Virus record (IMG/VR): IMGVR_UViG_3300025849_002481
Span: 1 to 64,000 of that record
DNA length: 64,000 nucleotides
Source of the DNA: a virus
Reading direction: 5' to 3' (one strand)
The notes under the pieces were generated by a model. That model saw only the letters and a program-made list of their open reading frames with translations. It was not told the DNA's origin and ran no database searches. The position numbers were made by a program, and so were the translations under genes. Below are positions 7,764-61,887 of this stretch, one piece after another. The stretch's first letter is position 1; each line of letters begins with the position of its first letter.

Positions 7764-9584
7764 ATGTCAAAAAAAACAGGATACATAGCAGGAATTGCAA
7801 GAGGTCATAATGCTGGAGTTTGTCTTCTCAAAGACGGTGAAATTGTTTTTAGTATTGAAGAAGAAAGACTTACTAGAGCAAAGTATGACGGGACACCATT
7901 TGCAAGTATAATTAAAATATTAGACTACACTGATAAAATAGATTATTTGGTTATATCTCATACACATGCAGACGAGAATGTTACAGACTATACAGCAGAA
8001 GATCCTTACACTTCTTTAGCTAGGAAAATAGGATTAATAGAAGGAGGACACCCTTCTAAAAATCATCCACAAGTAGTTGAGTATTGGGAGCAACATCACA
8101 GAAGTCATGCAGCTTGTTCATTTTATAGGAGCGGTTTTGAAACAGCAAATATTATAATTGTTGACGGAGCAGGTACATATGCCACACGGCACGATGGTCA
8201 AACAATGTGGGAAGTTGAAAGCATATATCACGCATCTTATCCAAATAACTTTAACGAAGTATATAAACACTTTGGAGGTAATGGACCTTGGCCAACTGAA
8301 CATTATAACGAAGGCGTCGAAGTTTTAGTTGACGACAAAGCTGGCATAGTTAAAGCATATGAAGCTGTAACGCAATTTTGTGGATGGCATTCAATCGAGG
8401 CTGGCAAAACTATGGGATTATTTCCGTATGGATCTCCTAACCAAGCACCAAAAATATATGACGAAGTTAGTGCAAATAGAAATGTTATAATGCCTACATA
8501 TCCAAATGGAGCAAAAGTTAATGATGCATTATACCCTGAACTACTTGACAGAGTACAAGATCCTAAAGAACTTTGGTCAAATTTAAATGAAGATAGCAGT
8601 GAAGAAGAAATAAACAAAGTTGAACAATTACTTGCATCTGAAGATTTAACGCTATTAAATTCAAGAAGAAATATGGCATACAATGTACAAACAGAATCTC
8701 AACAACTAGTACTTGATTTAATTTTAAAGTCAATTGAAAAGACTGGAAATAAAAACATTGTAGTAAGCGGCGGATATGGATTAAATTGTGTAGCAAACTA
8801 CTTTTACTTAAAGCACTTACCAGCAGATGTTAAATTATATGTTGAACCAATTTCAACTGATGCAGGCACAGCAATAGGATCTGCATTATATCATTATCAT
8901 AAAATTACACAAGATAATAAAGTTAGACCTAAAAATGAAAACCTATATCTTGGACCTATTCAGAACATCACTAAAGATGAAATTATAGAATGTGCAAATA
9001 GATATAATGGTATTGTAGAACATAATGTTGATTATAAGAGTGTTATTAACACTATACGTGAAAAAAATATTGTAGCATTATATCAAGAACGTTGTGAAAA
9101 CGGTCCTAGAGCATTAGGTAATAGAAGTTTAATGTTTGATGCTACTGTACCTGATGGTAAAGACTTTGTTAATTTAATTAAAAAACGAGAATATTTTAGA
9201 CCGTTTGCTGCATCAGTATTACAAGAAGATGTACATGATTGGTTTGATCTAAGAGGTATGGAAGACTCTCCTAGTATGATGTATGCTGTAAACTGTCAAC
9301 CAGGAGTTCAAGAAAAGATACCTGCAGTTATTCATGTTGACGGTACTTGTAGAATACAAACTGTTACTAAAGAACAGAATGAACATTGGTATAATTTAAT
9401 TAACGAATTTAAATCACAAACCGGAGTACCTGCATTATTTAATACCAGTTTTAATTTAGGAGGCGAACCGTTAGTTGAAACTATTGATGATGCAATGCGT
9501 ACACTATACAACTCAGGAATTAATTATATATATTTTCCTACAACACAAACATTAGTAAAGATAGAACATAATGCTAGAGCCTAA
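7764..9584 (+). CDS. Carbamoyltransferase, NodU/CmcH/TobZ family (copy 1)
   Basis: A 606-residue, full-length member of the family that transfers carbamoyl from carbamoyl phosphate, via carbamoyl-adenylate, to a hydroxyl, often on a sugar. Visible are the N-terminal IARGHNAGVCLL start of the ASKHA-like fold, HHRSHAACSF at residues 111-120 (metal-binding His pair), VVDGAG near 133, VSGGYGLNC near 334 and the C-terminal ENGPRALGNRS and REYFRPFAASV motifs of the carbamoyl phosphate binding domain. It follows the GT9-like gene by 9 bases and overlaps a 2OG oxygenase by 14. A second, shorter copy lies at 59007-60479. The acceptor is unknown. Confidence 0.9.
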   Translation: MSKKTGYIAGIARGHNAGVCLLKDGEIVFSIEEERLTRAKYDGTPFASIIKILDYTDKIDYLVISHTHADENVTDYTAEDPYTSLARKIGLIEGGHPSKNHPQVVEYWEQHHRSHAACSFYRSGFETANIIIVDGAGTYATRHDGQTMWEVESIYHASYPNNFNEVYKHFGGNGPWPTEHYNEGVEVLVDDKAGIVKAYEAVTQFCGWHSIEAGKTMGLFPYGSPNQAPKIYDEVSANRNVIMPTYPNGAKVNDALYPELLDRVQDPKELWSNLNEDSSEEEINKVEQLLASEDLTLLNSRRNMAYNVQTESQQLVLDLILKSIEKTGNKNIVVSGGYGLNCVANYFYLKHLPADVKLYVEPISTDAGTAIGSALYHYHKITQDNKVRPKNENLYLGPIQNITKDEIIECANRYNGIVEHNVDYKSVINTIREKNIVALYQERCENGPRALGNRSLMFDATVPDGKDFVNLIKKREYFRPFAASVLQEDVHDWFDLRGMEDSPSMMYAVNCQPGVQEKIPAVIHVDGTCRIQTVTKEQNEHWYNLINEFKSQTGVPALFNTSFNLGGEPLVETIDDAMRTLYNSGINYIYFPTTQTLVKIEHNARA

Positions 9585-46099: not shown

Positions 46100-47329
46100 A
46101 TGGACAATATAAATTACACCATTGAAGATAGCCTTGAATATCTAGTCGGACTACGAAAAAATGTTTCGTTCCAACTTGACTCATCTGATGTGTCTTTTTT
46201 ACAGAGTATTGCTAGACAAACTTTTAAAGGAACTGCACTTACAGATAGACAATGCAATGTTGTTAAAGAAAAACTATTAAAATACAAAGATCAATTTCTT
46301 AAAGAAGATTATAATATCGATTATGCTTTAGATTATTTAAGAATGCCTCTTAGAGAAATTGATAGAAGTAAGTATGTTACAATTGCATATTATGCAGATG
46401 TACTGTGTATCAAAATTAGGTTTCCTTTTAGTAAAAATTTAATCTCCAAATTAGAATCAGTTACTAGACTAGTAAATCGAAATGATTACTTTCATGAAAA
46501 AGGAAGTCATGAACATTATTTTAGATTTAATGAAAGATCAATATTTGAAATAGTTTCTAAATTTCAATCTAATCAATTTGTTATTGATCAAGATATTATT
46601 GACATTTATGAAAAATTAGTAACAATGAATAATAATAAAAACGAGTATATACCAGGAGTTTACAATTTGAAATTAAAAAATTTAAGCGATATAGCAAAAA
46701 AATATATTTTTAGTAGTATCGGAGAACCTACTATTGAGAATCTAGCATTATACAAAGACAGACAACAACTATTTGGTCTACATCATTTTGATGAGAATGA
46801 TCTTAATGCTAGTCTAGACAATTTTACAACACTTTCTACAAATATTGTAAATCGTACTTCCTGTAATGTTTTTGTAAACAATACAAAATATACATTACAA
46901 AGTGTAGCAGAGTCGTTACTAGAATTAAATAGGTTTCCATTATTAGTTGTATTATCAGAAGATTCTTCACCACTTGACCAACTATACAGCGTATATCATT
47001 GTCTAAACGGATTTATTGAAAAAGGTGATTCAACAGTGCTGTTTAGACTCGACAATGATAAGAATTTTGAATTTAATAACTTTATTAAAAAATATAATTT
47101 AAATTCTCCACTTGACAAAAATACAAAAGTAGTGTATATTAGTATTAATAACATAACAAAACCATTGCTAAAATCAGAATGGAAGGCTAGTGCAACTTTA
47201 TTGATGTCTAGTCATAAGTTGATTTCAAAGGTTAAAACTTATGTTGATGAAAGTGATTTAATAATTCATTATGACGAGAACGTAAGTCAATATGCAAGAT
47301 TTAACGAGGATGGAATACAAGAAGTTTAA
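46100..47329 (+). CDS. Hypothetical protein upstream of uvsW
   Basis: A 409-residue protein, rich in N, K, I and D. The N-terminal 100 residues are helical; the C-terminal part (FPLLVVLSEDSSPLDQLYSVY, STVLFRLDN, TKVVYISINN, ASATLLMSSHKLISKVKTYV) looks like an alternating beta/alpha domain with helicase-like flavour but no Walker motif. It starts at ATG 46100 straight after a sigma-70 promoter and its stop overlaps the uvsW start (TAATG), which ties it to UvsW in expression. No family recognised. Confidence 0.6.
   Translation: MDNINYTIEDSLEYLVGLRKNVSFQLDSSDVSFLQSIARQTFKGTALTDRQCNVVKEKLLKYKDQFLKEDYNIDYALDYLRMPLREIDRSKYVTIAYYADVLCIKIRFPFSKNLISKLESVTRLVNRNDYFHEKGSHEHYFRFNERSIFEIVSKFQSNQFVIDQDIIDIYEKLVTMNNNKNEYIPGVYNLKLKNLSDIAKKYIFSSIGEPTIENLALYKDRQQLFGLHHFDENDLNASLDNFTTLSTNIVNRTSCNVFVNNTKYTLQSVAESLLELNRFPLLVVLSEDSSPLDQLYSVYHCLNGFIEKGDSTVLFRLDNDKNFEFNNFIKKYNLNSPLDKNTKVVYISINNITKPLLKSEWKASATLLMSSHKLISKVKTYVDESDLIIHYDENVSQYARFNEDGIQEV
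47112..47140 (+). promoter_or_regulatory. Possible internal sigma-70 promoter before uvsW
   Basis: TTGACA (47112-47117), 17-bp spacer, TATATT (47135-47140), about 190 bases before the uvsW ATG and inside the upstream gene. Confidence 0.4.
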
Positions 47330-48792
47330 TGGCAAGTTGTAAACTAATAATTGAAGATGAAGTAAATATTAAGATCGAAGGTCTTGAAGTAGACGTACGA
47401 AGAAAACTTGCAAATGCTCTTAAGTTTGAAGTTCCGTATGCTCGTTACATGCCACAGTATAAACTAGGTCGCTGGGATGGCAAGGTTGCTTTCTTTGGCA
47501 TAGGCGGCACTGGTTATGTTAATCACTTAGACACTGTACAACAAGTTCTTGCTAAAAATAATGTACAGATTATAGACATTGACGATAGACGTCATCCAAT
47601 TAAATTAGAATTTACACCAGTAACAGAAACATATTGGAAAGACCAAGGCGTAGTATGGCCAGAAGGTCATCCAGCAGAAGGCGAAGATATTATTCTACGT
47701 GACTATCAAGTAGAAGCAATTAATAACTTTTTAAACAATCCACAGAGCTTGCAACAAATTGCTACTGGTGCCGGTAAAACAATTACAACAGCAACGTTGT
47801 CACACCTAAGCGAGCCGTATGGTAGGTCTCTAGTAATTGTTCCTAACAAGTCGTTAGTAGAACAAACTGAAGAGGACTATATTAACTGCGGGCTCGACGT
47901 AGGGGTATACTTTGGAGACAGAAAACAACTAGGTAAGACTCACACTATATGCACTTGGCAATCCTTAAATATTTTGGACAAGAAGCACAAGGACGGCTCG
48001 GCAGTATTAAGCCTTGCAGAATTCCTTGAAGATGTGAGCACTATTATTGTCGATGAGGTACACCAAGCCAAAGCAGAAGTTCTTAAGAACTTGCTTACAC
48101 GCAACCTACGTAATGCTCCTATCCGTTGGGGACTAACTGGTACAGTGCCTAAAGAGAAGTTTGAGTTTGAAAGTATTCATGCATCACTAGGTCCTGTTAT
48201 TGGTCAGATCAGCGCAAAAGAATTACAAGACAAAGGTGTGTTAGCAAACTGTCATGTTAATATATGTCAACTAATTGACACAGTAGCACACAGTGGTTAT
48301 CAAGAAGAATTAAAATATCTTGTCAATAATAAAGATAGGGTAGAATATATAGGCAAATTATTAAACACAGTAAGTCAAGAAGGCAATACATTAATACTCG
48401 TAGATAGAATTAGTGCAGGCGAGATGTTAGCAGAGCTAATACCTAACAGTACATTTGTTAGTGGTTCAGTTAAAGTAAAAGATAGGAAAGAAACATATGA
48501 TACGATTCGTGAAGGAACTAACGAGGTTATTATCGCAACCTATGGAGTTGCTGCTGTGGGTCTTAACATTCCTCGTATCTTTAACTTGGTTCTACTCGAG
48601 CCTGGAAAAAGTTTTGTAAGAGTAATCCAATCTATCGGTAGAGGCGTAAGAAAGGCAAAGGACAAAGACTTTGTGCAAATTTGGGATATCACATCAACGT
48701 GCAAATTTGCTAAACGACATTTAACACAACGTAAAAAATTCTATAAAGAAGCACAGTATCCGTTTACTATAGAAAAAATAGATTGGAACTAA
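47329..48792 (+). CDS. uvsW: DNA/RNA helicase UvsW
   Basis: A 487-residue superfamily 2 helicase. The N-terminal domain has RYMPQYKLGRWDGKVAFF as in T4 UvsW. Motifs: LRDYQVEAINNFL (Q-like), IATGAGKTITTAT (Walker A, 145-151), IIVDEVHQAK (DEVH, 242-245), GLTGTVP, and VIQSIGRGVRKAK (motif VI). UvsW unwinds branched DNA and R-loops and helps switch from origin-dependent to recombination-dependent replication. ATG overlaps the previous stop. No separate ribosome site is obvious. Confidence 0.9.
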   Translation: MASCKLIIEDEVNIKIEGLEVDVRRKLANALKFEVPYARYMPQYKLGRWDGKVAFFGIGGTGYVNHLDTVQQVLAKNNVQIIDIDDRRHPIKLEFTPVTETYWKDQGVVWPEGHPAEGEDIILRDYQVEAINNFLNNPQSLQQIATGAGKTITTATLSHLSEPYGRSLVIVPNKSLVEQTEEDYINCGLDVGVYFGDRKQLGKTHTICTWQSLNILDKKHKDGSAVLSLAEFLEDVSTIIVDEVHQAKAEVLKNLLTRNLRNAPIRWGLTGTVPKEKFEFESIHASLGPVIGQISAKELQDKGVLANCHVNICQLIDTVAHSGYQEELKYLVNNKDRVEYIGKLLNTVSQEGNTLILVDRISAGEMLAELIPNSTFVSGSVKVKDRKETYDTIREGTNEVIIATYGVAAVGLNIPRIFNLVLLEPGKSFVRVIQSIGRGVRKAKDKDFVQIWDITSTCKFAKRHLTQRKKFYKEAQYPFTIEKIDWN

Positions 48793-52586: not shown

Positions 52587-53014
52587 AAGACATACTTGCG
52601 GCTATTGATATGGGAGCAAGTAATGTATGGGACGAACTTAGTGACGAAGAACGTAAACAAGTTAGCTTTTGGTTACTTAATAGATATATCTCTAGTGTTA
52701 AAGGCAGTCGCGATAAACAAGAGCTTGCTATTTTTAAAACAAACGAATACTATAATAAAAACTGGAATGTATTAGCAACAAGACACCCTAAGCTACAATG
52801 GCAATTATTGTGCCAAGCAGGTAATACAGGAAAGATTGAATATCATCAATGGATTGGTTTAAAAAAGAAAACAGGTAACACTAAAGTATTATCCTTACTT
52901 GAAAAAATATATCCTAACATGAAACAAGATGAGGTTGAATTACTTGCTGAACTATCTACAAAAAAAGAACTCAAACAATTGGCTGAGGAACATAACATTG
53001 AAGTCAAGCTCTGA
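52562..53014 (+). CDS. 62: Clamp loader small subunit gp62-like (probable)
   Basis: A 150-residue protein. PIKDILAAIDMGASNVWDEL, DEERKQVSFWLLNRYISSVK, HPKLQWQLLCQA, EYHQWIGLKKK and LLEKIYPNMKQDEVELLAEL follow the layout of the gp62 proteins of T4-like cyanophages, which differ from T4 gp62. With gp44 it loads the sliding clamp gp45. Here gp44 is not adjacent; the upstream neighbour is kdsB with a 25-base overlap. The identification rests on family pattern recalled, without an alignment. Confidence 0.6.
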   Translation: MAQQKLPIKDILAAIDMGASNVWDELSDEERKQVSFWLLNRYISSVKGSRDKQELAIFKTNEYYNKNWNVLATRHPKLQWQLLCQAGNTGKIEYHQWIGLKKKTGNTKVLSLLEKIYPNMKQDEVELLAELSTKKELKQLAEEHNIEVKL

Positions 53015-53693
53015 TAAACCATATAAGTGTGAATACTGTGGAAGCGGTTATGTAAGAGAGAAAACTCTCTTTGCTCACATGTGTGAAAAGAAACGTAGAG
53101 CGTTACAAAAAGACGAGAAGCGTGTACGCTATGGGTTTTATGCATTTGGTCGTTTTTATAAATTAAGTGCAGGCAATAAGAAAGAGAAAACGTATGAGGA
53201 TTTTTGTTCTAGTCCCTATTATAATGCTTTTGTTAAGTTTGGGAGTTTTGTTAATAACGTCCAACCTTTATATCCTGAACGATATATTGATTACGTTGTT
53301 ACAAGTGGTGTCAAACTAGATCACTGGGCACGAGATGAAATGTATGAAAAATATGTGCTACAATTTATATTAAAAGAAGATGTAACAACAGCATTAGAAC
53401 GTAGTGTAAAAACTATGTTAGACTGGGCAAGTGAAAATGAGCCAGCACCGTGGAATCATTACTTTGACCATATTAGTTTAAACAGAGCTGTATGGAATAT
53501 TAAAGACGGTAAAATATCACCTTGGCTCTTATTAAACTGTACCAGTGGCAAAACTATGCTAAGTAAGTTTAATGATGAACAACTTGAAATGGTGTATCAT
53601 GTAATCAATCCACAACATTGGGCAATGAGATTTAAAAGGTTACCTAATGATGTACAACTTGTAAAAGATGTTGCGAGAGAAAGTAATTTATGA
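52998..53693 (+). CDS. C2H2 zinc-finger hypothetical protein
   Basis: About 231 residues from TTG 52998, which has GAGGAA eight bases upstream and overlaps gp62 by 17 bases; the alternative ATG at 52929 would overlap by 86. The N-terminus has YKCEYCGSGYVREKTLFAHM followed by C, a zinc-finger pattern (C-x2-C...H-x-C). The rest is helical and aromatic (YEDFCSSPYYNAFVKFGSF, DYVVTSGVKLDHW, EPAPWNHYFDHI). It lies between clamp-loader and kinase genes, so DNA binding in replication or transcription is plausible. No family name. Confidence 0.6.
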   Translation: MKSSSDKPYKCEYCGSGYVREKTLFAHMCEKKRRALQKDEKRVRYGFYAFGRFYKLSAGNKKEKTYEDFCSSPYYNAFVKFGSFVNNVQPLYPERYIDYVVTSGVKLDHWARDEMYEKYVLQFILKEDVTTALERSVKTMLDWASENEPAPWNHYFDHISLNRAVWNIKDGKISPWLLLNCTSGKTMLSKFNDEQLEMVYHVINPQHWAMRFKRLPNDVQLVKDVARESNL

Positions 53694-54115
53694 AAATATT
53701 AATATTTGGTTTACCAGGTAGTGGTAAGAGTACATTAGCAGAACCATTTGCTAAATTAATTGATGGCATATGGATTAACGCAGATGCAGTGCGTAAAAAA
53801 TATGATGATTGGGACTTTACTCCTGAAGGTCGTATGCGACAAGCCAATAGAATGAAACACCTAAGTGATGGTGTAGTTATGGCTGGCAAACATGCTGTTG
53901 CTGACTTTGTGTGCCCCACCGAAGAAGCACGTAAAGCATTTAATCCAGACTTTACTGTGTGGATGGATACTATTTCTCGAGGTCGCTTTGAAGATACAAA
54001 TGATATGTTTGAAACACCTCCTAAGTGTGACTATCATGTAGCGACATGGTTTGACGATACTCATGCGCAGTTGTTACAAGTGGTACAACGCTGGATGGAA
54101 CGAAATGGTAACTAA
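53690..54115 (+). CDS. Adenylylsulfate kinase-like protein (CysC-type)
   Basis: A 141-residue P-loop kinase. ILIFGLPGSGKSTLAEPFA is Walker A; IWINADAVRKKYDDWDFTPE, RQANRM and VADFVCPTEEARKAF follow the APS kinase layout (AD.VR, DFspEgR, ..A.FI.P....R), ending VWMDTI..GRFEDTN. APS kinase makes PAPS, the sulfate donor. Somewhat shorter than CysC (about 200). Two sulfotransferase-like genes in the window would need PAPS. ATGA-coupled to the zinc-finger gene and overlapped by a small membrane protein gene. Confidence 0.7.
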   Translation: MKILIFGLPGSGKSTLAEPFAKLIDGIWINADAVRKKYDDWDFTPEGRMRQANRMKHLSDGVVMAGKHAVADFVCPTEEARKAFNPDFTVWMDTISRGRFEDTNDMFETPPKCDYHVATWFDDTHAQLLQVVQRWMERNGN

Positions 54116-54314
54116 GGCTAGACACTTAGCTAAAGCAGTTACATGGCGTGTTATAGCAAGTATTATCACTGCACTTATTGCATGGTATTTTGGATTACCT
54201 CCGAAAGCAGTCGGGGCTGTTTTCGTGGCTGATCTAATTATTAAGTTCGTTTTATACTACGGACACGAAAGAATATGGTACAAGTATATTAAGTTTGGAG
54301 TTAAAGATGTTTGA
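54105..54314 (+). CDS. DUF2061-like small membrane protein
   Basis: About 69 residues from ATG 54105, which overlaps the upstream stop; the longer frame to 54051 would lie inside the kinase gene. RHLAKAVTWRVIASIITALI is the DUF2061 start, with two membrane segments (IITALIAWYF and VGAVFVADLIIKFVLYY) and the terminal YGHERIWYKY. Such proteins are of unknown function and are often near sulfate-assimilation genes, which fits the APS-kinase neighbour. Overlaps the next gene by 8 bases. Confidence 0.7.
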   Translation: MVTKARHLAKAVTWRVIASIITALIAWYFGLPPKAVGAVFVADLIIKFVLYYGHERIWYKYIKFGVKDV

Positions 54315-54711
54315 TCAATTTAAGCCTACAACACAGATGCTAGGTAGATGGCAACCATGGCATCCTGGGCATACAGAATTGTTTAAACGTGCCCTTGCAG
54401 AAACAGGACAAGTTTGTATTCAAATTAGAACTGTACCGCAAGACACAGATGCATCAGGCGGACGCACTATGATACAAGATGATAATCCTTTTGTGGTCAC
54501 AGACGTGCAAGAGAATATTAAAAAAGAACTTGCAAAAGAAGGCTATACATACAACGAAGAATATATTATAATGGTTGTTCCAAATATTGTAGATATTAGT
54601 TATGGTAGGGGTGTAGGATATACATTGACAGAACACGATTTAGGTGCTACAATACATAACATAAGTGCAACAAAAATTAGAAAACAAATGAGAGACGAAG
54701 GAAAACTATAG
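54307..54711 (+). CDS. HxGH nucleotidyltransferase-like protein
   Basis: A 134-residue protein from ATG 54307. MLGRWQPWHPGHTELFKRA is the HxGH nucleotide-binding loop of the cytidylyltransferase/NMN adenylyltransferase superfamily and ISATKIRKQMRDEG is the matching C-terminal (I/T)S.T.IR motif. It would transfer a nucleotide to a phosphate or acid. Coupling with an APS-kinase-like gene makes an ATP-sulfurylase-like role conceivable, but the loop looks more like NMNAT than sulfurylase. Substrate unknown. Its stop overlaps a GTG start (TAGTG). Confidence 0.65.
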   Translation: MFDQFKPTTQMLGRWQPWHPGHTELFKRALAETGQVCIQIRTVPQDTDASGGRTMIQDDNPFVVTDVQENIKKELAKEGYTYNEEYIIMVVPNIVDISYGRGVGYTLTEHDLGATIHNISATKIRKQMRDEGKL

Positions 54712-55214
54712 TGGAAGTAATACAAAACTTTTTATCTAAAGAAGCACATGACAAGATTAAAACTGTTATGTGCAATTATGATAAATTTGATCATGTAGAA
54801 TTTCCTTGGTACCTATCTCGAAATGTTGCTAGTACTGAGTCAAATAATGATAAAGAATTTTACATGTATCATCCGTTCTATTGGGATCATGCTCCAGCAA
54901 GTCAATGGTTTAACGAATTACTACTTCCGCTAATGCAAGAATTACAACCAAGAAGTTTGATGAGAGTTAAAGGAAACTTATATCCTGGAACAGAAACTAT
55001 ACTAGAACACGAACCCCATGTAGATGATACGTTTAGTCACAGAGGTGCTTTGTATTTTGTAAATACTAATGATGGTTATACAACACTTAATGATGGAACA
55101 AAAGTAAACTCAGTTGAGAATAGTGTATTACTATTTGATCCTAGTGAACCTCATTTTAGTTCAACGTGTACTAATGATAAGTTTCGTATAACAATTAATA
55201 TAAATTATTTTTAA
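54711..55214 (+). CDS. 2-oxoglutarate/Fe(II) oxygenase-like protein
   Basis: A 167-residue protein from GTG 54711, with GAAGGA upstream. RVKGNLYPGT, HEPHVDDTFSHRGALYFVN (His-x-Asp metal pair) and TTLNDGTKV followed by NSVLLFDPSEPHFS (distal His) and DKFRITININYF (Arg for 2-oxoglutarate) give the complete facial-triad layout of phage 2OG oxygenases. It could hydroxylate a nucleic acid, protein or sugar. It is coupled on both sides (TAGTG, TAATG), the latter to a 28-residue membrane peptide. Confidence 0.75.
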   Translation: MEVIQNFLSKEAHDKIKTVMCNYDKFDHVEFPWYLSRNVASTESNNDKEFYMYHPFYWDHAPASQWFNELLLPLMQELQPRSLMRVKGNLYPGTETILEHEPHVDDTFSHRGALYFVNTNDGYTTLNDGTKVNSVENSVLLFDPSEPHFSSTCTNDKFRITININYF

Positions 55215-55300
55215 TGATAGTTGCATTTTTATTTTTATGTGTATGTTATGCACTACCATTATTAATGTTATATATGATGAATAACGAAGAGCCAAAATAA
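55214..55300 (+). CDS. Tiny single-pass membrane peptide (28 aa)
   Basis: ATG 55214 overlaps the previous stop (TAATG), and its own stop overlaps the next start in the same way, so it is framed by two coupling junctions. The peptide has a hydrophobic stretch of about 20 residues (VAFLFLCVCYALPLLMLYMM) and a short polar tail NNEEPK. The exact fit between two genes is strong evidence that it is real. No family known for such a short sequence. Confidence 0.6.
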   Translation: MIVAFLFLCVCYALPLLMLYMMNNEEPK

Positions 55301-55869
55301 TGCCAGATATTGATATAGATTTTGCAGATAGAGATGTGATATTATCACAACTAAAACATCGTGTGGCAAAACTAAATACAGGAAAGAAACACAATACTGG
55401 TGTGTATACTACAGAAATACCACACAACCCAGTAGATAACTTATCTACAATCGAACACAAGACAGCAGAAGAACGCGGTTACTTTAAACTAGATTTTTTA
55501 AATGTGTCTATATACAAAGATGTAAGAGACGAGGCACATTTACAAGAACTTATGGAAAGGGAACCACTATGGGAACTACTGGAACACGAAGACTTCAGCG
55601 AAAAAGTCTTTCATCTAAACGGGCACAACGATCTATTGAAACGATTGAAGCCCACATCGGTCAAACAATTAGCAGCAACACTAGCAATTATACGGCCAGC
55701 GAAACGACATCTAGCGAACGAGAGTTGGGAAACAATACACAAACAAGTATGGACAAAGCCAACAGACGGAACATACTATTTTAAAAAAGCACATGCGTTT
55801 GCATATGCTTTATCGGTAGTAGTACATATAAATTTATTATGTGAAGAACTTAATTCTTTGGACGCTTAA
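55300..55869 (+). CDS. Miniature DnaE-like (C-family DNA polymerase) protein
   Basis: A 189-residue protein that reads like a condensed DNA polymerase III alpha subunit. MPDIDIDFADRD (Asp5, Asp7) corresponds to the palm motif PDxDxDF; YFKLDFLN (Asp65) to K(F/L)DFLGL; VFHLNGHNDLLKRLKP with QLAATLAIIRP to VFQLES.GMKDLIKRLQP..fedmiALvALfRPGP; FKKAHAFAYALS to FNKSHSAAYAL. The PHP, most of the palm, most of the fingers and the beta-binding parts are absent. Whether it polymerises DNA is open; interference with, or docking to, host replication is equally possible. It converges with the next gene by 20 bases. Confidence 0.65.
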   Translation: MPDIDIDFADRDVILSQLKHRVAKLNTGKKHNTGVYTTEIPHNPVDNLSTIEHKTAEERGYFKLDFLNVSIYKDVRDEAHLQELMEREPLWELLEHEDFSEKVFHLNGHNDLLKRLKPTSVKQLAATLAIIRPAKRHLANESWETIHKQVWTKPTDGTYYFKKAHAFAYALSVVVHINLLCEELNSLDA

Positions 55870-56221
55870 CTAACTGTACGTTTTTACGCTTTACTCTTTT
55901 AATTGTTAAATTATTTAAATTAACGCACGGTCCCATTGTAATTTTTACATCTTTGCTATTCATAGTTGTAATACAGTATTGAAAATGTAACATCTCTTTG
56001 CGCATAAAGATATTAATTGGAATCATTCTATTTGACTCCCACCACCATACTTCACCTAAGGATAAAAACGCTTTCTTTTCGTCAATAGTCTTTAAGTCGG
56101 TATAAACATACATTGATGTTATATACTGATCTTGATTTGCAATAATACCAACGTATTCATTACCGCCGTAAGTAACAACACTAATGAATGGGTAATTTTC
56201 TTGAATATCTTTAGTTAACAT
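55850..56221 (-). CDS. Hypothetical protein
   Basis: A 123-residue minus-strand protein, ATG with GAGGA site seven bases upstream. ISVVTYGGNEYVGIIANQDQ and LSLGEVWWWESNRMIPINIF suggest a small beta-barrel of the Sm/SH3-like kind; the C-terminus is basic (TIKRVKRKNVQLVKRPK). The sequence would suit RNA or protein binding. No family recognised. It is divergent from a late virion gene and converges with the DnaE-like gene. Confidence 0.6.
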   Translation of the reverse strand: MLTKDIQENYPFISVVTYGGNEYVGIIANQDQYITSMYVYTDLKTIDEKKAFLSLGEVWWWESNRMIPINIFMRKEMLHFQYCITTMNSKDVKITMGPCVNLNNLTIKRVKRKNVQLVKRPKN

Positions 56222-57069: not shown

Positions 57070-58053
57070 ATGAGTGTAGTAAACGATATAGTTCTGACAT
57101 ACTTGCCTTCTAAAAGGAAAATGACTCCTAGCGGTTGGCTTAGTTTCAATGCTCCTTGTTGTCATCATAACGGCACAGGAGCAGACACTCGCGGTAGAGG
57201 AGGCTTAATAAGCAACTCTGATGGAGGCGTAAGTTATCATTGTTTTAATTGCGGCTTCAAAGCAAGCTGGCAACCGGGCAGGAACTTTAGTCACAAGTTA
57301 CGTAAACTTCTCCAATGGATGGGAGCACCTGACGATATAATCAACAAGGTGGCACTTGAGGTTATGAGAGAGAATGAAGGCGTCGAAGCTAAGACACTAA
57401 TAGCACAGTTGCCTACATTTAATACTGTCCCGTTGCCAGACGATGCTATTAAAATAACAGACATAACAGACTTTAACAAATATAGTATGGCTGTACTAGA
57501 ATATATGGCCAATCGTAATTTAAATACAGATGATACAAACTATTATTGGTCACCTAGTTTAGGTTACCGTGATAGATTGATTATACCGTTTTACTATGAA
57601 GGCCGAGTTGTAGGTTGGACCGGGCGTAGTGTACAAGCAGATAAGAAACCTAAGTATCTAACAGAAGTGCAACCTGGATTTGTATATGGATTAGATGAAC
57701 AAAGTTACAACAAGGCATTTGCTATAGTATGTGAAGGTCAGCTAGATGCTATTCACATAGAAGGATGCGCATTGGGCGGATCAGAAATAAACGAACAACA
57801 AGCAATGCTGTTAAATAAGTTACAGAAGCAAATTATTGTTGTTCCTGATAGAGATAGTGCAGGCAAGAAACTTGTTGAACAATCTATTGAATTAGGATTT
57901 AGTGTTAGTATGCCAGACTGGAGTACTGACGTTAATGACATTGGCGATGCTGTACAAAAATATGGAAGACTATATACACTACATAACATTTCAATTTGTG
58001 CAGAAGAATCACCGTTAAAAATTAGACTGAGAGCAAAAAAATGGTTTACATAA
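57070..58053 (+). CDS. 61: DNA primase gp61 (DnaG-like)
   Basis: A 327-residue primase. The N-terminal zinc finger is APCCHHNGTG (C30/C31, H32) with VSYHCFNCGFK (C58, C61). The TOPRIM core has RLIIPFYYEGRVVGWTGR, FAIVCEGQLDAIHIEG (Glu221) and IIVVPDRDSAGKKL (Asp259, Asp261). It lays RNA primers on the lagging strand together with the gp41 helicase, whose gene lies three genes downstream. The C-terminal helicase-binding region is short. ATG 57070 follows a -10 box by six bases with no ribosome site. Confidence 0.9.
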   Translation: MSVVNDIVLTYLPSKRKMTPSGWLSFNAPCCHHNGTGADTRGRGGLISNSDGGVSYHCFNCGFKASWQPGRNFSHKLRKLLQWMGAPDDIINKVALEVMRENEGVEAKTLIAQLPTFNTVPLPDDAIKITDITDFNKYSMAVLEYMANRNLNTDDTNYYWSPSLGYRDRLIIPFYYEGRVVGWTGRSVQADKKPKYLTEVQPGFVYGLDEQSYNKAFAIVCEGQLDAIHIEGCALGGSEINEQQAMLLNKLQKQIIVVPDRDSAGKKLVEQSIELGFSVSMPDWSTDVNDIGDAVQKYGRLYTLHNISICAEESPLKIRLRAKKWFT

Positions 58054-58158: not shown

Positions 58159-59010
58159 ATGACAACATTACATACGTTCGGTTGTAGTATTACACAAGGA
58201 CATGCACTTCCAGATGTAGTTAAACCTCCACTCACAGCAGAAGAAGAAGTTGCATTAGGTAGAGAGTCACATTGGGCAGATGAACATATACTTAAACCCA
58301 GTAACTATGCTTGGCCTAAATTACTAGGCGATAAACTTAATTTGCCTGTACAAAATTATGCAAAACGTGGAGCTTGCTTTCAACAAATTGCTCGACAATG
58401 TGCTGTGTCAGCTCAAAACATTAAACCTGATGACATTGTAATAGTAATGTGGACATACTTTAGTAGGCTTACTTTACAGTGGCCAGCTAGAACAGCCGTT
58501 CCGCTTACACATATACCAGCACCAGAAAACAATTTCCTAACACGTATATTGCCAGGCTTTAATAAATTCTTTGGTCTTAGTCAACTAAAAGAACCTGATC
58601 CTTTTGACGAAACTGAAGGGAAGATTTATAACTACATACAGTCGTCTATAAATTATACATTTGATCCGTTGGTTATGTATGATCGATTCCATAACAATTT
58701 AGTTTTACAAACAATGACAGACGGTCACCTTAGATCTACTGGTGCAAAGATTATACATTTAAGTGTAGAATATCAACCATATATAGATCAACTTGAAGGT
58801 GCAAGACAAGCTCTTGATACATCATTACAGTCACCATATGAAATACCAGATCCAAATGATTGGTATTCTTTATCAGTAGATCATGATAGCTGTCGAATAA
58901 TTCATGATCCTAGTATACCGTTAACAGGTGAAAACGGACATCCTAATGTTCAACATCATATTAACTATGCTAACCATATCTATGAAAAACATTTTGGAGG
59001 AGGAGTATGA
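58159..59010 (+). CDS. SGNH/GDSL hydrolase-like protein
   Basis: A 283-residue protein. HTFGCSITQGHALPD at residues 5-19 is the block I nucleophile motif (G.S.T.G), NYAKRGACFQQIA matches the block II Gly region, DIVIVMWTYFSRL resembles block III, and NGHPNVQHHINYANHI carries the terminal His. Such enzymes add or remove acyl groups on sugars. No signal peptide is seen, so it acts in the cytoplasm. It is ATGA-coupled to the second carbamoyltransferase, so both may act on the same glycan. Confidence 0.7.
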   Translation: MTTLHTFGCSITQGHALPDVVKPPLTAEEEVALGRESHWADEHILKPSNYAWPKLLGDKLNLPVQNYAKRGACFQQIARQCAVSAQNIKPDDIVIVMWTYFSRLTLQWPARTAVPLTHIPAPENNFLTRILPGFNKFFGLSQLKEPDPFDETEGKIYNYIQSSINYTFDPLVMYDRFHNNLVLQTMTDGHLRSTGAKIIHLSVEYQPYIDQLEGARQALDTSLQSPYEIPDPNDWYSLSVDHDSCRIIHDPSIPLTGENGHPNVQHHINYANHIYEKHFGGGV

Positions 59011-60479
59011 TCACCTGGGGGATTTCAGCTAACAGTCACGATGCTGCACTAGCAGTGTTTACAGACAACGGACTAGAGTTTGCTAGTCACGCTGAACGTT
59101 TTAGCGGAGTTAAGAATGACCCACATCTCAATAAAGAGATAATTAACTATGCACGTAAATGGGGAGAGCCAGATGAAGTTGTTTGGTACGAAAAGCCTTT
59201 TAGAAAAACTCTTAGACAGCTTCGAGCAGGACAAGGATTCAACTTTAGGGAAAACAATATTAATCGTTATCTTCGACAGTATGGGATATCTGCTCCTATT
59301 CGTACTGTTTCTCATCATCATTCCCATGCTGCTGCCGGTTATTATACTTCCCCTTTTACAGAAGCCACTGTTGTTTGTATTGACAGTATTGGAGAATTTG
59401 AAACTCTTACCATATGGGAAGGAGAAGGAACTAGACTTAAAAAAGTCTATTCACAAGGATACCCCAACTCTATCGGACTTTGGTATTCGGCTCTCACACA
59501 AAGAGTAGGACTAAAACCTAACGAAGATGAATATATACTAATGGGTATGGCCGCTTATGGAGACCCTCAACGTTTATGGAACGACATGTATGAAATGTTT
59601 GATTACATTGACGGACCTGACATTAGATTTAAAGAGAACTTACACCGAGGGTGCAAGCAATGGAAGCCAGAGCTTACTACAGAACAAGATATGTTTGACA
59701 TTGCAGCTGTAACCCAAAAGACATATGAGTTTACCCTAGAGCAAATATTGGCATGGGCCAAGAAGAACACAAAGAGCAATAACCTAGTTCTTATGGGAGG
59801 GTGTGCATTAAACTGTAGTGCTAACCATTTAGCCTATAAGTATTTTGATGACGTATGGATTATGCCAAACCCGGGCGATGCAGGATCAGCAATAGGGTCA
59901 GTATTAGCTCATAAGAAAGAACACATGCCCATGGATCATGCATACCTGGGTTACAACATTGAAGGAGACTACCCAGTTGAAGAAGCAATCAGCGAACTTA
60001 AGAAAACGGGAATCGTGGGCGTTGCGAATGGTCGGGCGGAGTTTGGCCCTAGGGCTTTTGGCAATCGTAGCCTACTTGCTGATCCCAGGGGAAGGGATAT
60101 CAAAAGCAAAGTCAATGACATTAAGAAAAGACAACAGTTCAGACCCTTTGCTCCCGTGGTGCTCGCAGAACACGCAAGCAAAAACTTCAAAGGACACTAT
60201 AATAACTATATGCAGTTTACCTCCAAGTGCAAACATCCATTCCTGTATCCTGCCATCACCCACGTGGACGGCACAAGTAGAGTACAAACTGTTGAAGCAG
60301 ATGGAAGCGGGATTAGAAGATTGTTAGAAGCATGGTATGAGGAAACAGGCTGTCCAATGTTGTTGAACACTTCGCTCAATATCAAGGGCAAGCCCATGGT
60401 AAATAACTTGACAGATGCACAAGAGTTTGCTATAATGTATAATGTAAAAGTATGTACAAAGGCTACAGATGACAACTAG
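59007..60479 (+). CDS. Carbamoyltransferase, NodU/CmcH family (copy 2)
   Basis: A 490-residue member, 116 shorter than copy 1. TWGISANSHDAALAVF begins the fold, SHHHSHAAAGYY (residues 102-113) gives the metal His set, MGGCALNCSAN and NPGDAGSAIG the central motif, and AEFGPRAFGNRSLLADPRG with QQFRPFAPVVL the C-terminal carbamoyl-phosphate domain. Both copies keep all main motifs but differ in length and context, suggesting different acceptors. ATGA-coupled to the SGNH gene. Its last codons contain the gp41 promoter. Confidence 0.9.
   Translation: MITWGISANSHDAALAVFTDNGLEFASHAERFSGVKNDPHLNKEIINYARKWGEPDEVVWYEKPFRKTLRQLRAGQGFNFRENNINRYLRQYGISAPIRTVSHHHSHAAAGYYTSPFTEATVVCIDSIGEFETLTIWEGEGTRLKKVYSQGYPNSIGLWYSALTQRVGLKPNEDEYILMGMAAYGDPQRLWNDMYEMFDYIDGPDIRFKENLHRGCKQWKPELTTEQDMFDIAAVTQKTYEFTLEQILAWAKKNTKSNNLVLMGGCALNCSANHLAYKYFDDVWIMPNPGDAGSAIGSVLAHKKEHMPMDHAYLGYNIEGDYPVEEAISELKKTGIVGVANGRAEFGPRAFGNRSLLADPRGRDIKSKVNDIKKRQQFRPFAPVVLAEHASKNFKGHYNNYMQFTSKCKHPFLYPAITHVDGTSRVQTVEADGSGIRRLLEAWYEETGCPMLLNTSLNIKGKPMVNNLTDAQEFAIMYNVKVCTKATDDN
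60409..60437 (+). promoter_or_regulatory. Consensus sigma-70 promoter for gp41
   Basis: TTGACA (60409-60414), 17-bp spacer, TATAAT (60432-60437): perfect consensus within the carbamoyltransferase gene, 31 bases before the gp41 ATG. Confidence 0.85.
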
Positions 60480-61887
60480 ACAAAATACAGATTATGGTTA
60501 TGATATACAGAAAGTATATCTAGAAATGTTTATGACAGATGCTGAAAGTTTTATACGCTGTCAAGGTGTATTTGATCCAAAGACATTTGATAGACGACTA
60601 CAGTTGCCAGCTGAATTTATTAAAACATATGTAGAAGAACATAATGCGTTACCTACATTTGATATAGTAAATGCAGCCGCAGATGTTAATTTAAAACACC
60701 CAGGTGATTTAGCAGAGAATCACTATGATTGGTTGTTACAAGACTTTGAAACATTCAGTAAACACAAAGCACTAGAGGCTGCTATTCTTAAGAGTGCAGA
60801 CTTACTTGAATCAGGTGAGTATGGTGCGTGTGAAGATTTAGTTAAACAGGCTGTGCAGATTGGATTGCAAAAAGACTTAGGCACAGACTATTGGGCTGAC
60901 CCTAGAGCAAGGTTGATGGCTATCAAAGATAAGAACGGACAGATATCTACAGGCTGGCCTACACTAGATAAGAAACTGTTTGGCGGATTCAACAGAGGCG
61001 AACTGAATATCTTTGCAGGAGGTTCAGGCTCTGGTAAGAGTTTGTTTATGGCAAACTTAGGTGTGAACTGGTGTATGCAAGGATTAAACGTAATGTACTT
61101 AACGTTTGAACTTTCAGAGAACTTAGTTAGTATGCGTCTTGATAGTATGACAACAGATATTCCAAGTAGAGATATTTTTAAAAGTATCGATGATGTTGAA
61201 ATGAAAGTCAAGATGATTGGTAAGAAGAATGGTGCATTCCAAGTTAAGTACATGCCTACAGGTAAAACAGCAAATGATGTACGTGCATACTTAAAAGAAT
61301 ATGAAATTAAAACAGGCAAGAAAGTAGATGTACTATTGATTGACTACTTAGATCTTATGCATCCAATTGGTCAAAAGATTAGTGCAGAGAACTTGTTTGT
61401 AAAAGACAAGTATGTATCAGAAGAACTACGTAACTTGGCAATGGAATTAAACACAATCTTTGTTACAGCATCACAGCTGAATAGAAGTAGTGTAGAAGAG
61501 ATTGAGTTTGATCATTCGCATATTAGTGGTGGTATATCTAAGATCAATACAGCAGATAATTTGATTGGTATCTTTACAAGTCGTGCTATGCGTGAGCGCG
61601 GACGCTATCAAATACAGTTAATGAAAACTAGAAGTAGTAGTGGCGTGGGTATGAAAGTTGATCTAGGGTTTGATGTAGATACATTGCGTATTGTAGACCT
61701 TGGCGAAGATGAACAAGATGGCGGCTCAGCTACACAGGGTAACGGAGCAAGCTCAATTGTTAATGCGTTAAAGCGTACTAACACTCCAAGTGAATCACCA
61801 GAAGAAGGTGTTCCGGCAGGTAAGATACGTGCTGAAACTGATAGCACAAAGCTAAGAGCGTTTCTTAATAATCTTGACGGCGAGTAG
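60469..61887 (+). CDS. 41: Replicative DNA helicase gp41 (DnaB-like)
   Basis: A 472-residue helicase. The N-terminal domain of about 140 residues is helical; the RecA-type motor has LNIFAGGSGSGKSLFMANL (Walker A, 184-191), VMYLTFELSE, KVDVLLIDYLDLMHP (Walker B), FVTASQLNRSS and HISGGISKINTADNLIGIF. It unwinds DNA ahead of the leading-strand polymerase and works with gp61. ATG 60469 overlaps the carbamoyltransferase by 11 bases, with its own promoter. The end is low-complexity (GSATQGNGASS). Confidence 0.93.
   Translation: MTTRQNTDYGYDIQKVYLEMFMTDAESFIRCQGVFDPKTFDRRLQLPAEFIKTYVEEHNALPTFDIVNAAADVNLKHPGDLAENHYDWLLQDFETFSKHKALEAAILKSADLLESGEYGACEDLVKQAVQIGLQKDLGTDYWADPRARLMAIKDKNGQISTGWPTLDKKLFGGFNRGELNIFAGGSGSGKSLFMANLGVNWCMQGLNVMYLTFELSENLVSMRLDSMTTDIPSRDIFKSIDDVEMKVKMIGKKNGAFQVKYMPTGKTANDVRAYLKEYEIKTGKKVDVLLIDYLDLMHPIGQKISAENLFVKDKYVSEELRNLAMELNTIFVTASQLNRSSVEEIEFDHSHISGGISKINTADNLIGIFTSRAMRERGRYQIQLMKTRSSSGVGMKVDLGFDVDTLRIVDLGEDEQDGGSATQGNGASSIVNALKRTNTPSESPEEGVPAGKIRAETDSTKLRAFLNNLDGE

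What the first reader, a model, noticed from the sequence alone, without database searches (positions are those of the whole stretch)
55300..55869. A 189-residue miniature of DNA polymerase III alpha (DnaE)
All three catalytic Asp motifs (PDIDIDF, KLDFL) and the fingers motifs (VFHLNG...LLKRLKP...LAIIRP, FKKAHAFAYAL) occur in the right order, but in under 200 residues instead of about 1,100, with only 58 residues between Asp7 and Asp65. A T4-like phage uses a B-family polymerase, so a stripped C-family core is unexpected. It could be a decoy that binds the host clamp loader or template, a regulator, or a genuinely minimal polymerase.
Basis: partly seen in the sequence, partly recalled or inferred. 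Interest (0 to 1): 0.85.

Follow-up and report, generated by a model that had tools for sequence, protein, structure and literature searches.

The report
Half of a split mini DNA polymerase
This phage gene makes one half of a stripped-down bacterial-type DNA polymerase whose other half is encoded by a separate gene in related giant phages; the family is already in print, but what it does appears to be untested.

Summary
ORF 55300-55869 encodes a 189-aa protein with the DnaE palm and fingers motifs in order. It belongs to phrog_11778 (E 1.4e-61). AlphaFold2 models it at pLDDT 93.9, and the model superposes on E. coli Pol III alpha 400-781 (Z 8.8; best match Z 10.0).

It is not a self-contained polymerase. 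It starts at the catalytic strand and lacks the palm segment with GRGS. A second small phage protein (phrog_11127) covers that segment and ends at alpha residue 393. All 12 named phages tested encode both halves and a B-family polymerase, as does a 236-kb relative of this window. The window's 75.7-kb record holds only this half.

Active-site residues are near-invariant, purifying selection is strong, and the neighbours are replication genes. My reading: a non-covalently assembled, thumb-less C-family polymerase core that assists the B-family replicase. Assembly and activity are untested.

Iyer et al. 2021 (PMC7824862) already described this split minimal Pol III. New here: split point, conservation, models, neighbours. 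Some relatives also carry a single-chain 554-aa C-family polymerase.

The parts
55300..55869 (+). C-terminal half of a split minimal DNA polymerase III alpha (catalytic palm strands plus reduced fingers), 189 aa, phrog_11778
55303..55323 (+). PDIDIDF, residues 2-8; D3 and D5 align with E. coli alpha D401 and D403, D7 with D405
   Evidence: Asp in 216 of 217 aligned rows; in the other (L341) TDIDIDI lies in frame upstream of the start my script chose
55486..55500 (+). KLDFL: K63 aligns with K553 and D65 with D555 of E. coli alpha
   Evidence: both residues in 217 of 217 sequences
55693..55698 (+). R132-P133 of the fingers, aligned with alpha R639-P640
   Evidence: 217 of 217 (IRP was part of a search pattern)
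55780..55812 (+). FKKAHAFAYAL of the fingers; H165 aligns with alpha H760
   Evidence: H165 in 217 of 217
55850..56221 (-). convergent 123-aa gene, phrog_11637, unknown function, overlapping the end of the polymerase half by 20 bases; constant neighbour
   Evidence: (236 of 240 loci)
52929..53693 (+). conserved upstream neighbour phrog_11058, C2H2 zinc-finger-like (sub-threshold in Pfam)
   Evidence: 172 of 175 loci
57070..58053 (+). DNA primase (T4 gp61-like), conserved downstream neighbour
   Evidence: 176 of 181 loci
60469..61887 (+). DnaB-like replicative helicase (T4 gp41-like)
   Evidence: 136 of 143 loci
47329..48792 (+). DNA helicase in the place where annotated relatives carry UvsW

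Best explanation
The ORF encodes the C-terminal subunit of a two-protein, thumb-less C-family DNA polymerase core. The partner (phrog_11127, about 170 aa, encoded near the clamp-loader gene in relatives) supplies the first part of the palm with GRGSS, the NTP-binding part according to PMC7824862. This protein supplies the three metal-binding Asp, the Lys beside the third, and the Arg and His of the fingers. The active site forms only when the two proteins meet, without an intein. The two chains cover only the palm without thumb and reduced fingers, with nothing in place of the PHP and C-terminal parts of alpha (domain names recalled). The core should therefore be a short-range, recruited polymerase that serves the phage's B-family replicase in primer extension, gap filling or lesion repair. 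Shown here: homology, fold, complementarity of the halves, their co-occurrence in complete named genomes, residue conservation, purifying selection and replication-gene context. Inferred: that the window's own virus has the partner, physical assembly, DNA polymerase activity and biological role.
For: Family and fold: phrog_11778 at 1.4e-61. The AF2 model (pLDDT 93.9, pTM 0.83) has 14 polymerase rows first in VIA, Z 10.0 to 6.2, with 170-187 of 189 residues aligned; the next row is Z 3.3. Eleven of the 14 are Pol III alpha by title or by molecule name; three (9qrn, 9qpc, 9qrl) are titled only 'DNA polymerase' and I take them for PolC from their residue ranges, which match those of PolC 3f2b. 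Complementarity: the partner model's residues 74-174 align on E. coli alpha 278-393 (4jom, Z 11.5; hhalign 323-393), this protein on 400-781 (2hnh): five or six residues between, no overlap. Of 93 distinct partners, 92 end with a stop within two residues of the match end; the other (L191) runs off its locus, so no intein tail. 0 of 216 C-halves have more than 60 open codons upstream. Co-occurrence: 12 of 12 named phages have both halves and PolB; 58 of the 60 listed records with this half have the partner among the listed rows. Conservation: D3/D5/D7 Asp in 217 of 217, K63, D65, R132, H165 in 217 of 217; partner R154, G155, S156, S160 in 93 of 93 (set collected partly by a GRGS pattern). Ka/Ks 0.07-0.20 in 11 pairs with the window. 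Context: primase 176 of 181, helicase 136 of 143; partner followed by GroES in 85 of 85 and a gp44-like clamp loader in 61 of 66.
Against: No biochemical evidence for binding or activity. The partner is not in the window's own 75.7-kb record, which lacks PolB too and is probably a fragment. Of 18 further records, 3 (IMG/VR, 195-222 kb) carry this half without a detectable partner, and one of these has PolB. Of 16 IMG/VR contigs near the window only 1 has a full partner, and the longest (262 kb) has neither partner nor PolB. Of 24 contigs with the partner only the 3 longest have this half. Some relatives carry a complete single-chain C-family polymerase in the same block, so this half may serve another enzyme there. 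The complex could not be modelled with the tools. hhalign of the C-half with E. coli DnaE alone is weak (probability 14%, E 0.0019), and Foldseek gives the partner model no match under E 0.001 (best 0.011, Pol III alpha). How template DNA would be held is unclear.
Confidence: 0.66

Rival explanations
1. The two halves assemble into a nucleotidyltransferase that is no longer a templated DNA polymerase, for example adding nucleotides without template to DNA ends or to a protein.
For: The models align only on alpha 278-393 and 400-781, so the thumb and C-terminal parts are missing. The palm has the pol-beta nucleotidyltransferase fold (PMC7824862), which also serves non-polymerases (PMC11646218, passages).
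Against: The fingers positions R132 and H165 stay invariant with the Asp, and the genes sit with primase, helicase and clamp loader.
Confidence: 0.18
2. A catalytically idle decoy or regulator that binds the host clamp loader, replisome or template.
For: The protein is truncated relative to alpha, and relatives have their own B-family polymerase.
Against: Metal-binding and nucleotide-site residues are invariant in both halves. The parts of alpha that touch clamp and tau (recalled) are outside the aligned range 400-781.
Confidence: 0.06
3. The half is an accessory of another C-family polymerase, such as the single-chain 540-554-aa enzyme that some relatives encode after the helicase.
For: 59 IMG/VR loci carry that enzyme; 19 of 20 with a full 10 kb upstream also carry this half.
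Against: It is absent from the window's record and from 29 of 32 records with this half, the 8 named genomes included.
Confidence: 0.04
4. The 189-residue protein alone is a genuinely minimal, self-sufficient polymerase.
For: AF2 folds it confidently alone. African swine fever virus PolX is described as a minimal palm-plus-fingers polymerase of another family (PMC11646218, passage).
Against: The GRGS segment of the palm is missing and is encoded by a partner present in all 12 named phages tested.
Confidence: 0.05
5. A decaying fragment of a captured host dnaE with no function.
For: Only its reduced size.
Against: Ka/Ks 0.07-0.20, 216 distinct open relatives, near-full-length matches down to 34% identity, and a genome-wide scan that found only 5 metagenome-assembled contigs.
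Confidence: 0.01

Closest known systems
Split minimal DNA polymerase III alpha of group 2.2 jumbo phages (Iyer et al. 2021, PMC7824862; passages read)
   Different: Nothing in kind. This report adds an uncultivated clade (no megablast match of 24 kb of the window to the phage collection), the split point, conservation in 217 and 93 distinct sequences, models of both halves, constant neighbours, and relatives that also carry a single-chain C-family polymerase, whereas the paper's passage says such phages have no other Pol III domains.
Bacterial DnaE/PolC alpha subunit (E. coli DnaE, 1160 aa)
   Same: Palm and fingers fold and active-site residues in the same order.
   Different: Split between alpha residues 393 and 399; the halves total about 360 aa and align only on 278-393 and 400-781; 22 residues replace 407-510.
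phrog_11778 and phrog_11127 (PHROGs v4, both 'DNA polymerase')
   Same: The ORF matches phrog_11778 over residues 3-184; the partners of relatives match phrog_11127.
   Different: The labels say nothing of the split or of the pairing.
Cyanobacterial split DnaE joined by a trans-splicing intein (recalled, no call)
   Same: DnaE encoded by two separate genes.
   Different: There the pieces are spliced into a full-length enzyme. Here neither half carries an extension and the cut lies inside the palm.
African swine fever virus DNA polymerase X (PMC11646218, passage)
   Same: A viral polymerase with a nucleotidyltransferase-fold palm, described as only NT fold and fingers.
   Different: X family, single chain.

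Membership tests
C-family DNA polymerase (DnaE/PolC catalytic core) | C-family palm and fingers fold | tested here: met
   first 14 rows polymerases, Z 10.0-6.2, 170-187 of 189 residues aligned; for a partner (L181): first 14 rows, Z 12.5-8.1
C-family DNA polymerase (DnaE/PolC catalytic core) | Three metal-binding Asp (E. coli D401, D403, D555) | tested here: met
   D3, D5 and D65 in 217 of 217; numbering
C-family DNA polymerase (DnaE/PolC catalytic core) | Palm G-R-G-S motif in the same chain | tested here: not met
   absent from this ORF; present in the separate partner, 93 of 93 (pattern-selected) and 9 of 9 in A4
C-family DNA polymerase (DnaE/PolC catalytic core) | Thumb, PHP, clamp-binding and C-terminal parts in the chain | tested here: not met
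   189 residues that align on alpha 400-781 only, with 22 residues in place of 407-510. Whether other phage genes supply such parts was not tested
C-family DNA polymerase (DnaE/PolC catalytic core) | Templated 5'-3' DNA synthesis | not testable with these tools
   needs purified proteins
Split minimal Pol III of group 2.2 jumbo phages | Both halves encoded in one genome by separate, distant genes (family level) | tested here: met
   15 of 18 records, 12 of 12 named phages; window relative G002
Split minimal Pol III of group 2.2 jumbo phages | Both halves in the window's own genome | tested here: inconclusive
   no partner in the 75.7-kb record, which lacks PolB too and is probably a fragment
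Split minimal Pol III of group 2.2 jumbo phages | B-family replicase in the same genome (family level) | tested here: met
   16 of 18 records, 12 of 12 named phages; 6 of 15 records, relative G002 among them, not the window's
phrog_11778 | Full-length profile match | tested here: met
   E 1.4e-61, profile 8-195 of 197

The most novel reading that the evidence does not exclude
The two halves form the smallest known C-family polymerase, assembled in trans. It acts as a dedicated primer extender between the phage primase and its B-family replicase: a phage counterpart of the DnaE-to-PolC or Pol alpha-to-delta hand-off (both recalled), recruited through the primase-helicase encoded beside one half and the clamp loader encoded beside the other.
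Probability: 0.2. Interest if true: 0.82.

Novelty: new member of a known kind. Interest (0 to 1): 0.55.

Why it matters
If the pair is active, it shows how little of a bacterial replicase is needed for catalysis, and that a polymerase active site can be naturally cut in two within its catalytic palm and work without covalent joining. It would mean that a large group of phages runs two unrelated polymerase families in one replisome. It would also give a direct test of the suggestion in PMC7824862 that a simple split core models the ancestor of bacterial Pol III.

Tried and rejected
Considered and rejected: chance motif matches; pseudogene; self-sufficient mini polymerase (partner found); intein-joined halves (no extensions; a split intein is reported for PolB, not this gene, of phage MIJ3, PMC6892783, passages). 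I looked for a fused form of the two halves among the fetched relatives and found none. The genome-contig scan gave 5 loci, all in contigs of metagenome-assembled genomes, which I take for phage contigs without having tested it. Pfam-A gave nothing for the convergent gene.

One search shows a complete single-chain C-family polymerase there, followed up. I lowered the main confidence from 0.68 to 0.66 and the decoy rival from 0.07 to 0.06, and added a rival for it. Interest went from 0.52 to 0.55.

Limits of the counts: relatives were found through short patterns, some of which contain the Asp motif or IRP, so invariance of D3, D5, D7, R132 and P133 is partly built in. K63, D65 and H165 were in no pattern of the viral scans (the genome scan, 5 loci, used a pattern with K63 and D65). 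Six of 216 sequences carried residues read past their stop by my script. Neighbour counts are loci, not deduplicated (some contigs appear twice). In one search, 34 of the 236 convergent hits lie beyond my 700-base limit. The partner's GRGS invariance is biased by the pattern; A4, seven named phages plus two loci found with other patterns, also keeps it in 9 of 9.

Not in print: literature searches of the open-licence library listed no experimental study of this protein; I read passages of nine papers, none whole, and subscription journals are mostly not held. PMC5259590 (passages) reports the 172-aa partner of phage CBB as a truncated Pol III alpha. PMC6102473 (passages) reports a Pol III alpha gp316 of Atu_ph07, the number that the partner bears in NC_042013.

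Full report
Observation. The window ORF 55300-55869 (+, ATG, 189 aa) is as described. Its best profile is phrog_11778 'DNA polymerase' (E 1.4e-61, residues 3-184), with phrog_405 'DNA polymerase' (1190 positions) at 1e-5. Pfam and NCBIfam show only sub-threshold traces of DnaE, as does a single-sequence search of solved structures. In the phage collection tblastn finds 61 records, all covering at least 80% of the query, 34-54% identical in the 60 rows shown; most are genomes of 280-490 kb. In IMG/VR, 551 of 599 matched stretches encode a relative and the scan hit its limit. In one genome per prokaryote species only 5 loci were found, all in metagenome-assembled contigs. I infer that the family is phage-borne.

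Which residues. Against E. coli DnaE (positions): M1-F8 = M399-F406, so D3 = D401, D5 = D403, D7 = D405; H31 = H511; K63 = K553; D65 = D555; R132 = R639; K163 = K758; H165 = H760; Y169 = Y764. Between F8 and H31 there are 22 residues where alpha has 104; between R132 and H165 there are 32 where alpha has 120. In 217 distinct sequences (window plus 216), D3, D5 and D7 are Asp in 216 aligned rows; the remaining row, L341, has TDIDIDI in frame just upstream of the start that my script chose. H31, G34, K63, D65, W91, R132, P133 and H165 are identical in all 217. The pattern-based collection favours some of these, as told under Tried and rejected. Ka/Ks between the window and 11 relatives is 0.07-0.20, with synonymous sites near saturation in some pairs.

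Structure. AlphaFold2 with 104 sequences gives pLDDT 93.9 and pTM 0.83; strands 4-8 and 64-68 carry or border the Asp. Foldseek ranks Pol III alpha chains first (best E 4e-4, TM 0.44 on the query, rmsd 6.5; E. coli 2hnh only 0.042). VIA-align places 185 residues on 3e0d 461-841 at 3.5 A (Z 10.0) and 180 on E. coli 2hnh 400-781 at 3.9 A (Z 8.8). The first 14 rows are polymerases, Z 10.0-6.2, and the next row is Z 3.3.

The missing half. The protein starts at the catalytic strand, so the preceding palm with GRGS is absent. Iyer et al. 2021 (PMC7824862; passages read, not the whole text or figures) state that group 2.2 jumbo phages carry a minimal Pol III alpha split into two proteins from distant genes. 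Phage CBB_328 (172 aa, noted as a truncated Pol III alpha in PMC5259590) ends in GRGSSVSSYCLYLIGLHLVDSIKYELDVNEFLKW. It belongs to phrog_11127 and matches Pfam DNA_pol3_alpha above the cut-off. hhalign puts the partner family on alpha 323-393. The AF2 model of one partner (L181, pLDDT 90.3, pTM 0.70) aligns residues 74-174 on E. coli alpha 278-393 (4jom, Z 11.5) and 69-174 on 5lew 303-413 (Z 12.5); its first 67 residues are covered by no row. Foldseek gives this model nothing under E 0.001. The two proteins cover alpha 278-393 and 400-781 with no overlap. Of 93 distinct partners, 92 stop within two residues of the match end and one runs off its locus. None of 216 C-halves has more than 60 open codons upstream. 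No intein or fused form of the two halves was seen.

Co-occurrence. In 18 records searched with profiles, 18 have the C-half, 15 the partner and 16 a B-family polymerase. The 12 named phage genomes have all three; the three without a partner are IMG/VR records of 195-222 kb, one of them with PolB. By tblastn, 58 of the 60 listed records with the C-half also appear among the listed partner rows. Of the other two, RAS14 (OP752703) has the partner by profile and PP728206 is a 109-kb record. Among 16 IMG/VR contigs near the window, one full partner was found, in G002 (236,751 bases; C-half 75% identical to the window), which also has PolB; the largest (261,806 bases) has neither. From the other side, of 24 contigs with the partner the three longest (259-462 kb) have the C-half and the 21 shorter ones do not. 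The window's own record (75,720 bases) has neither partner nor PolB.

Neighbours. C-half loci with enough flank: convergent phrog_11637 gene 236 of 240, primase 176 of 181, DnaB-like helicase 136 of 143, C2H2-like protein 172 of 175. Annotated maps of named phages show much the same order, with UvsW or a helicase annotated upstream in several; RAS14 departs from it downstream. The convergent gene occurs in 58 phage records, all of which carry the C-half. Partner loci: GroES downstream in 85 of 85, gp44-like clamp loader in 61 of 66.

A third polymerase in some relatives. Three contigs near the window (G007, G008, G012) hold a frame of 420-554 aa, cut by the contig end in two, with GRGS-like, DVDIDF, KVDIL and IRP motifs in one chain. 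It matches DNA_pol3_alpha (2.1e-41) and DNA_pol3_finger (1.8e-15) above their cut-offs and phrog_405 at 5e-65; no PHP model was matched. Its best phage record is an uncultured 484-kb phage, 37% identical over 95% of it. IMG/VR holds 59 such loci. In 20 loci with a full 10 kb upstream, 20 have the helicase and 19 the C-half, and none of the 59 loci shows the phrog_11127 partner. In 8 such contigs of up to 108 kb a partner profile finds only the GRGS region of this enzyme; these are fragments, so absence of a partner is undecided. The enzyme is absent from the window's record and from 29 of 32 records searched.

Reading. The split, thumb-less C-family core is supported by sequence, structure, co-occurrence and context. 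Assembly, catalysis and role are inferred. A short-range auxiliary polymerase fits the small size. Genes beside primase-helicase on one side and clamp loader on the other suggest primer extension or gap filling, but neighbourhood alone cannot separate these from repair, from untemplated nucleotidyl transfer, or from service to another polymerase. The kind was published in 2021, and my literature searches listed no experiment on it. A survey of phage DNA polymerases by BLASTP with reference sequences does not mention it in the passages read (PMC11188092).

Noticed in passing
L115:136-1797 (-); also L113, L114, L372-L430: Relatives of the window encode, after the helicase, a single-chain C-family polymerase of about 540-554 aa without a PHP match, beside the split half: 59 IMG/VR loci, 19 of 20 with enough flank carrying the C-half too. 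Not in the window's record.
   Followed up: partly
window 55850-56221 (-): Convergent gene phrog_11637, with a GExWWWxSNRxxPINI-like stretch and a basic C-terminus, no Pfam match; its 58 phage records all carry the C-half.
   Followed up: partly
window 58159-60479 (+): Two genes, one without a Pfam match and one carbamoyltransferase (a second one is at 7764-9584), sit between primase and helicase, which are next to each other in the annotated maps of several named relatives.
   Followed up: partly
window 55214-55300 (+): A 28-aa hydrophobic peptide ORF whose start overlaps the preceding gene's stop and whose stop (TAATG) overlaps the start of the polymerase half; among loci L001-L059 similar peptides were seen in L002 and L058 only.
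   Followed up: partly
window 54711-55214 (+): PHROG labels this protein 'DNA endonuclease V' (phrog_274), but its second match is a 2OG-Fe(II) oxygenase family, so the label looks doubtful.
   Followed up: no
window 53690-54711 (+): Neighbouring small genes match an adenylylsulphate-kinase-like P-loop family, DUF2061 and, below threshold, a cytidylyltransferase-like family.
   Followed up: no
L181:5902-6423 (+), residues 1-67: The first 67 residues of the partner model are covered by no row of the structure table; they could be an added recruitment domain, untested.
   Followed up: no
PHROGs phrog_13169 (463 positions), phrog_11165 (782) and phrog_12219 (823): Other phage polymerase families of odd length match the partner or, weakly, the C-half; other phages may carry differently trimmed or split Pol III.
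   Followed up: no
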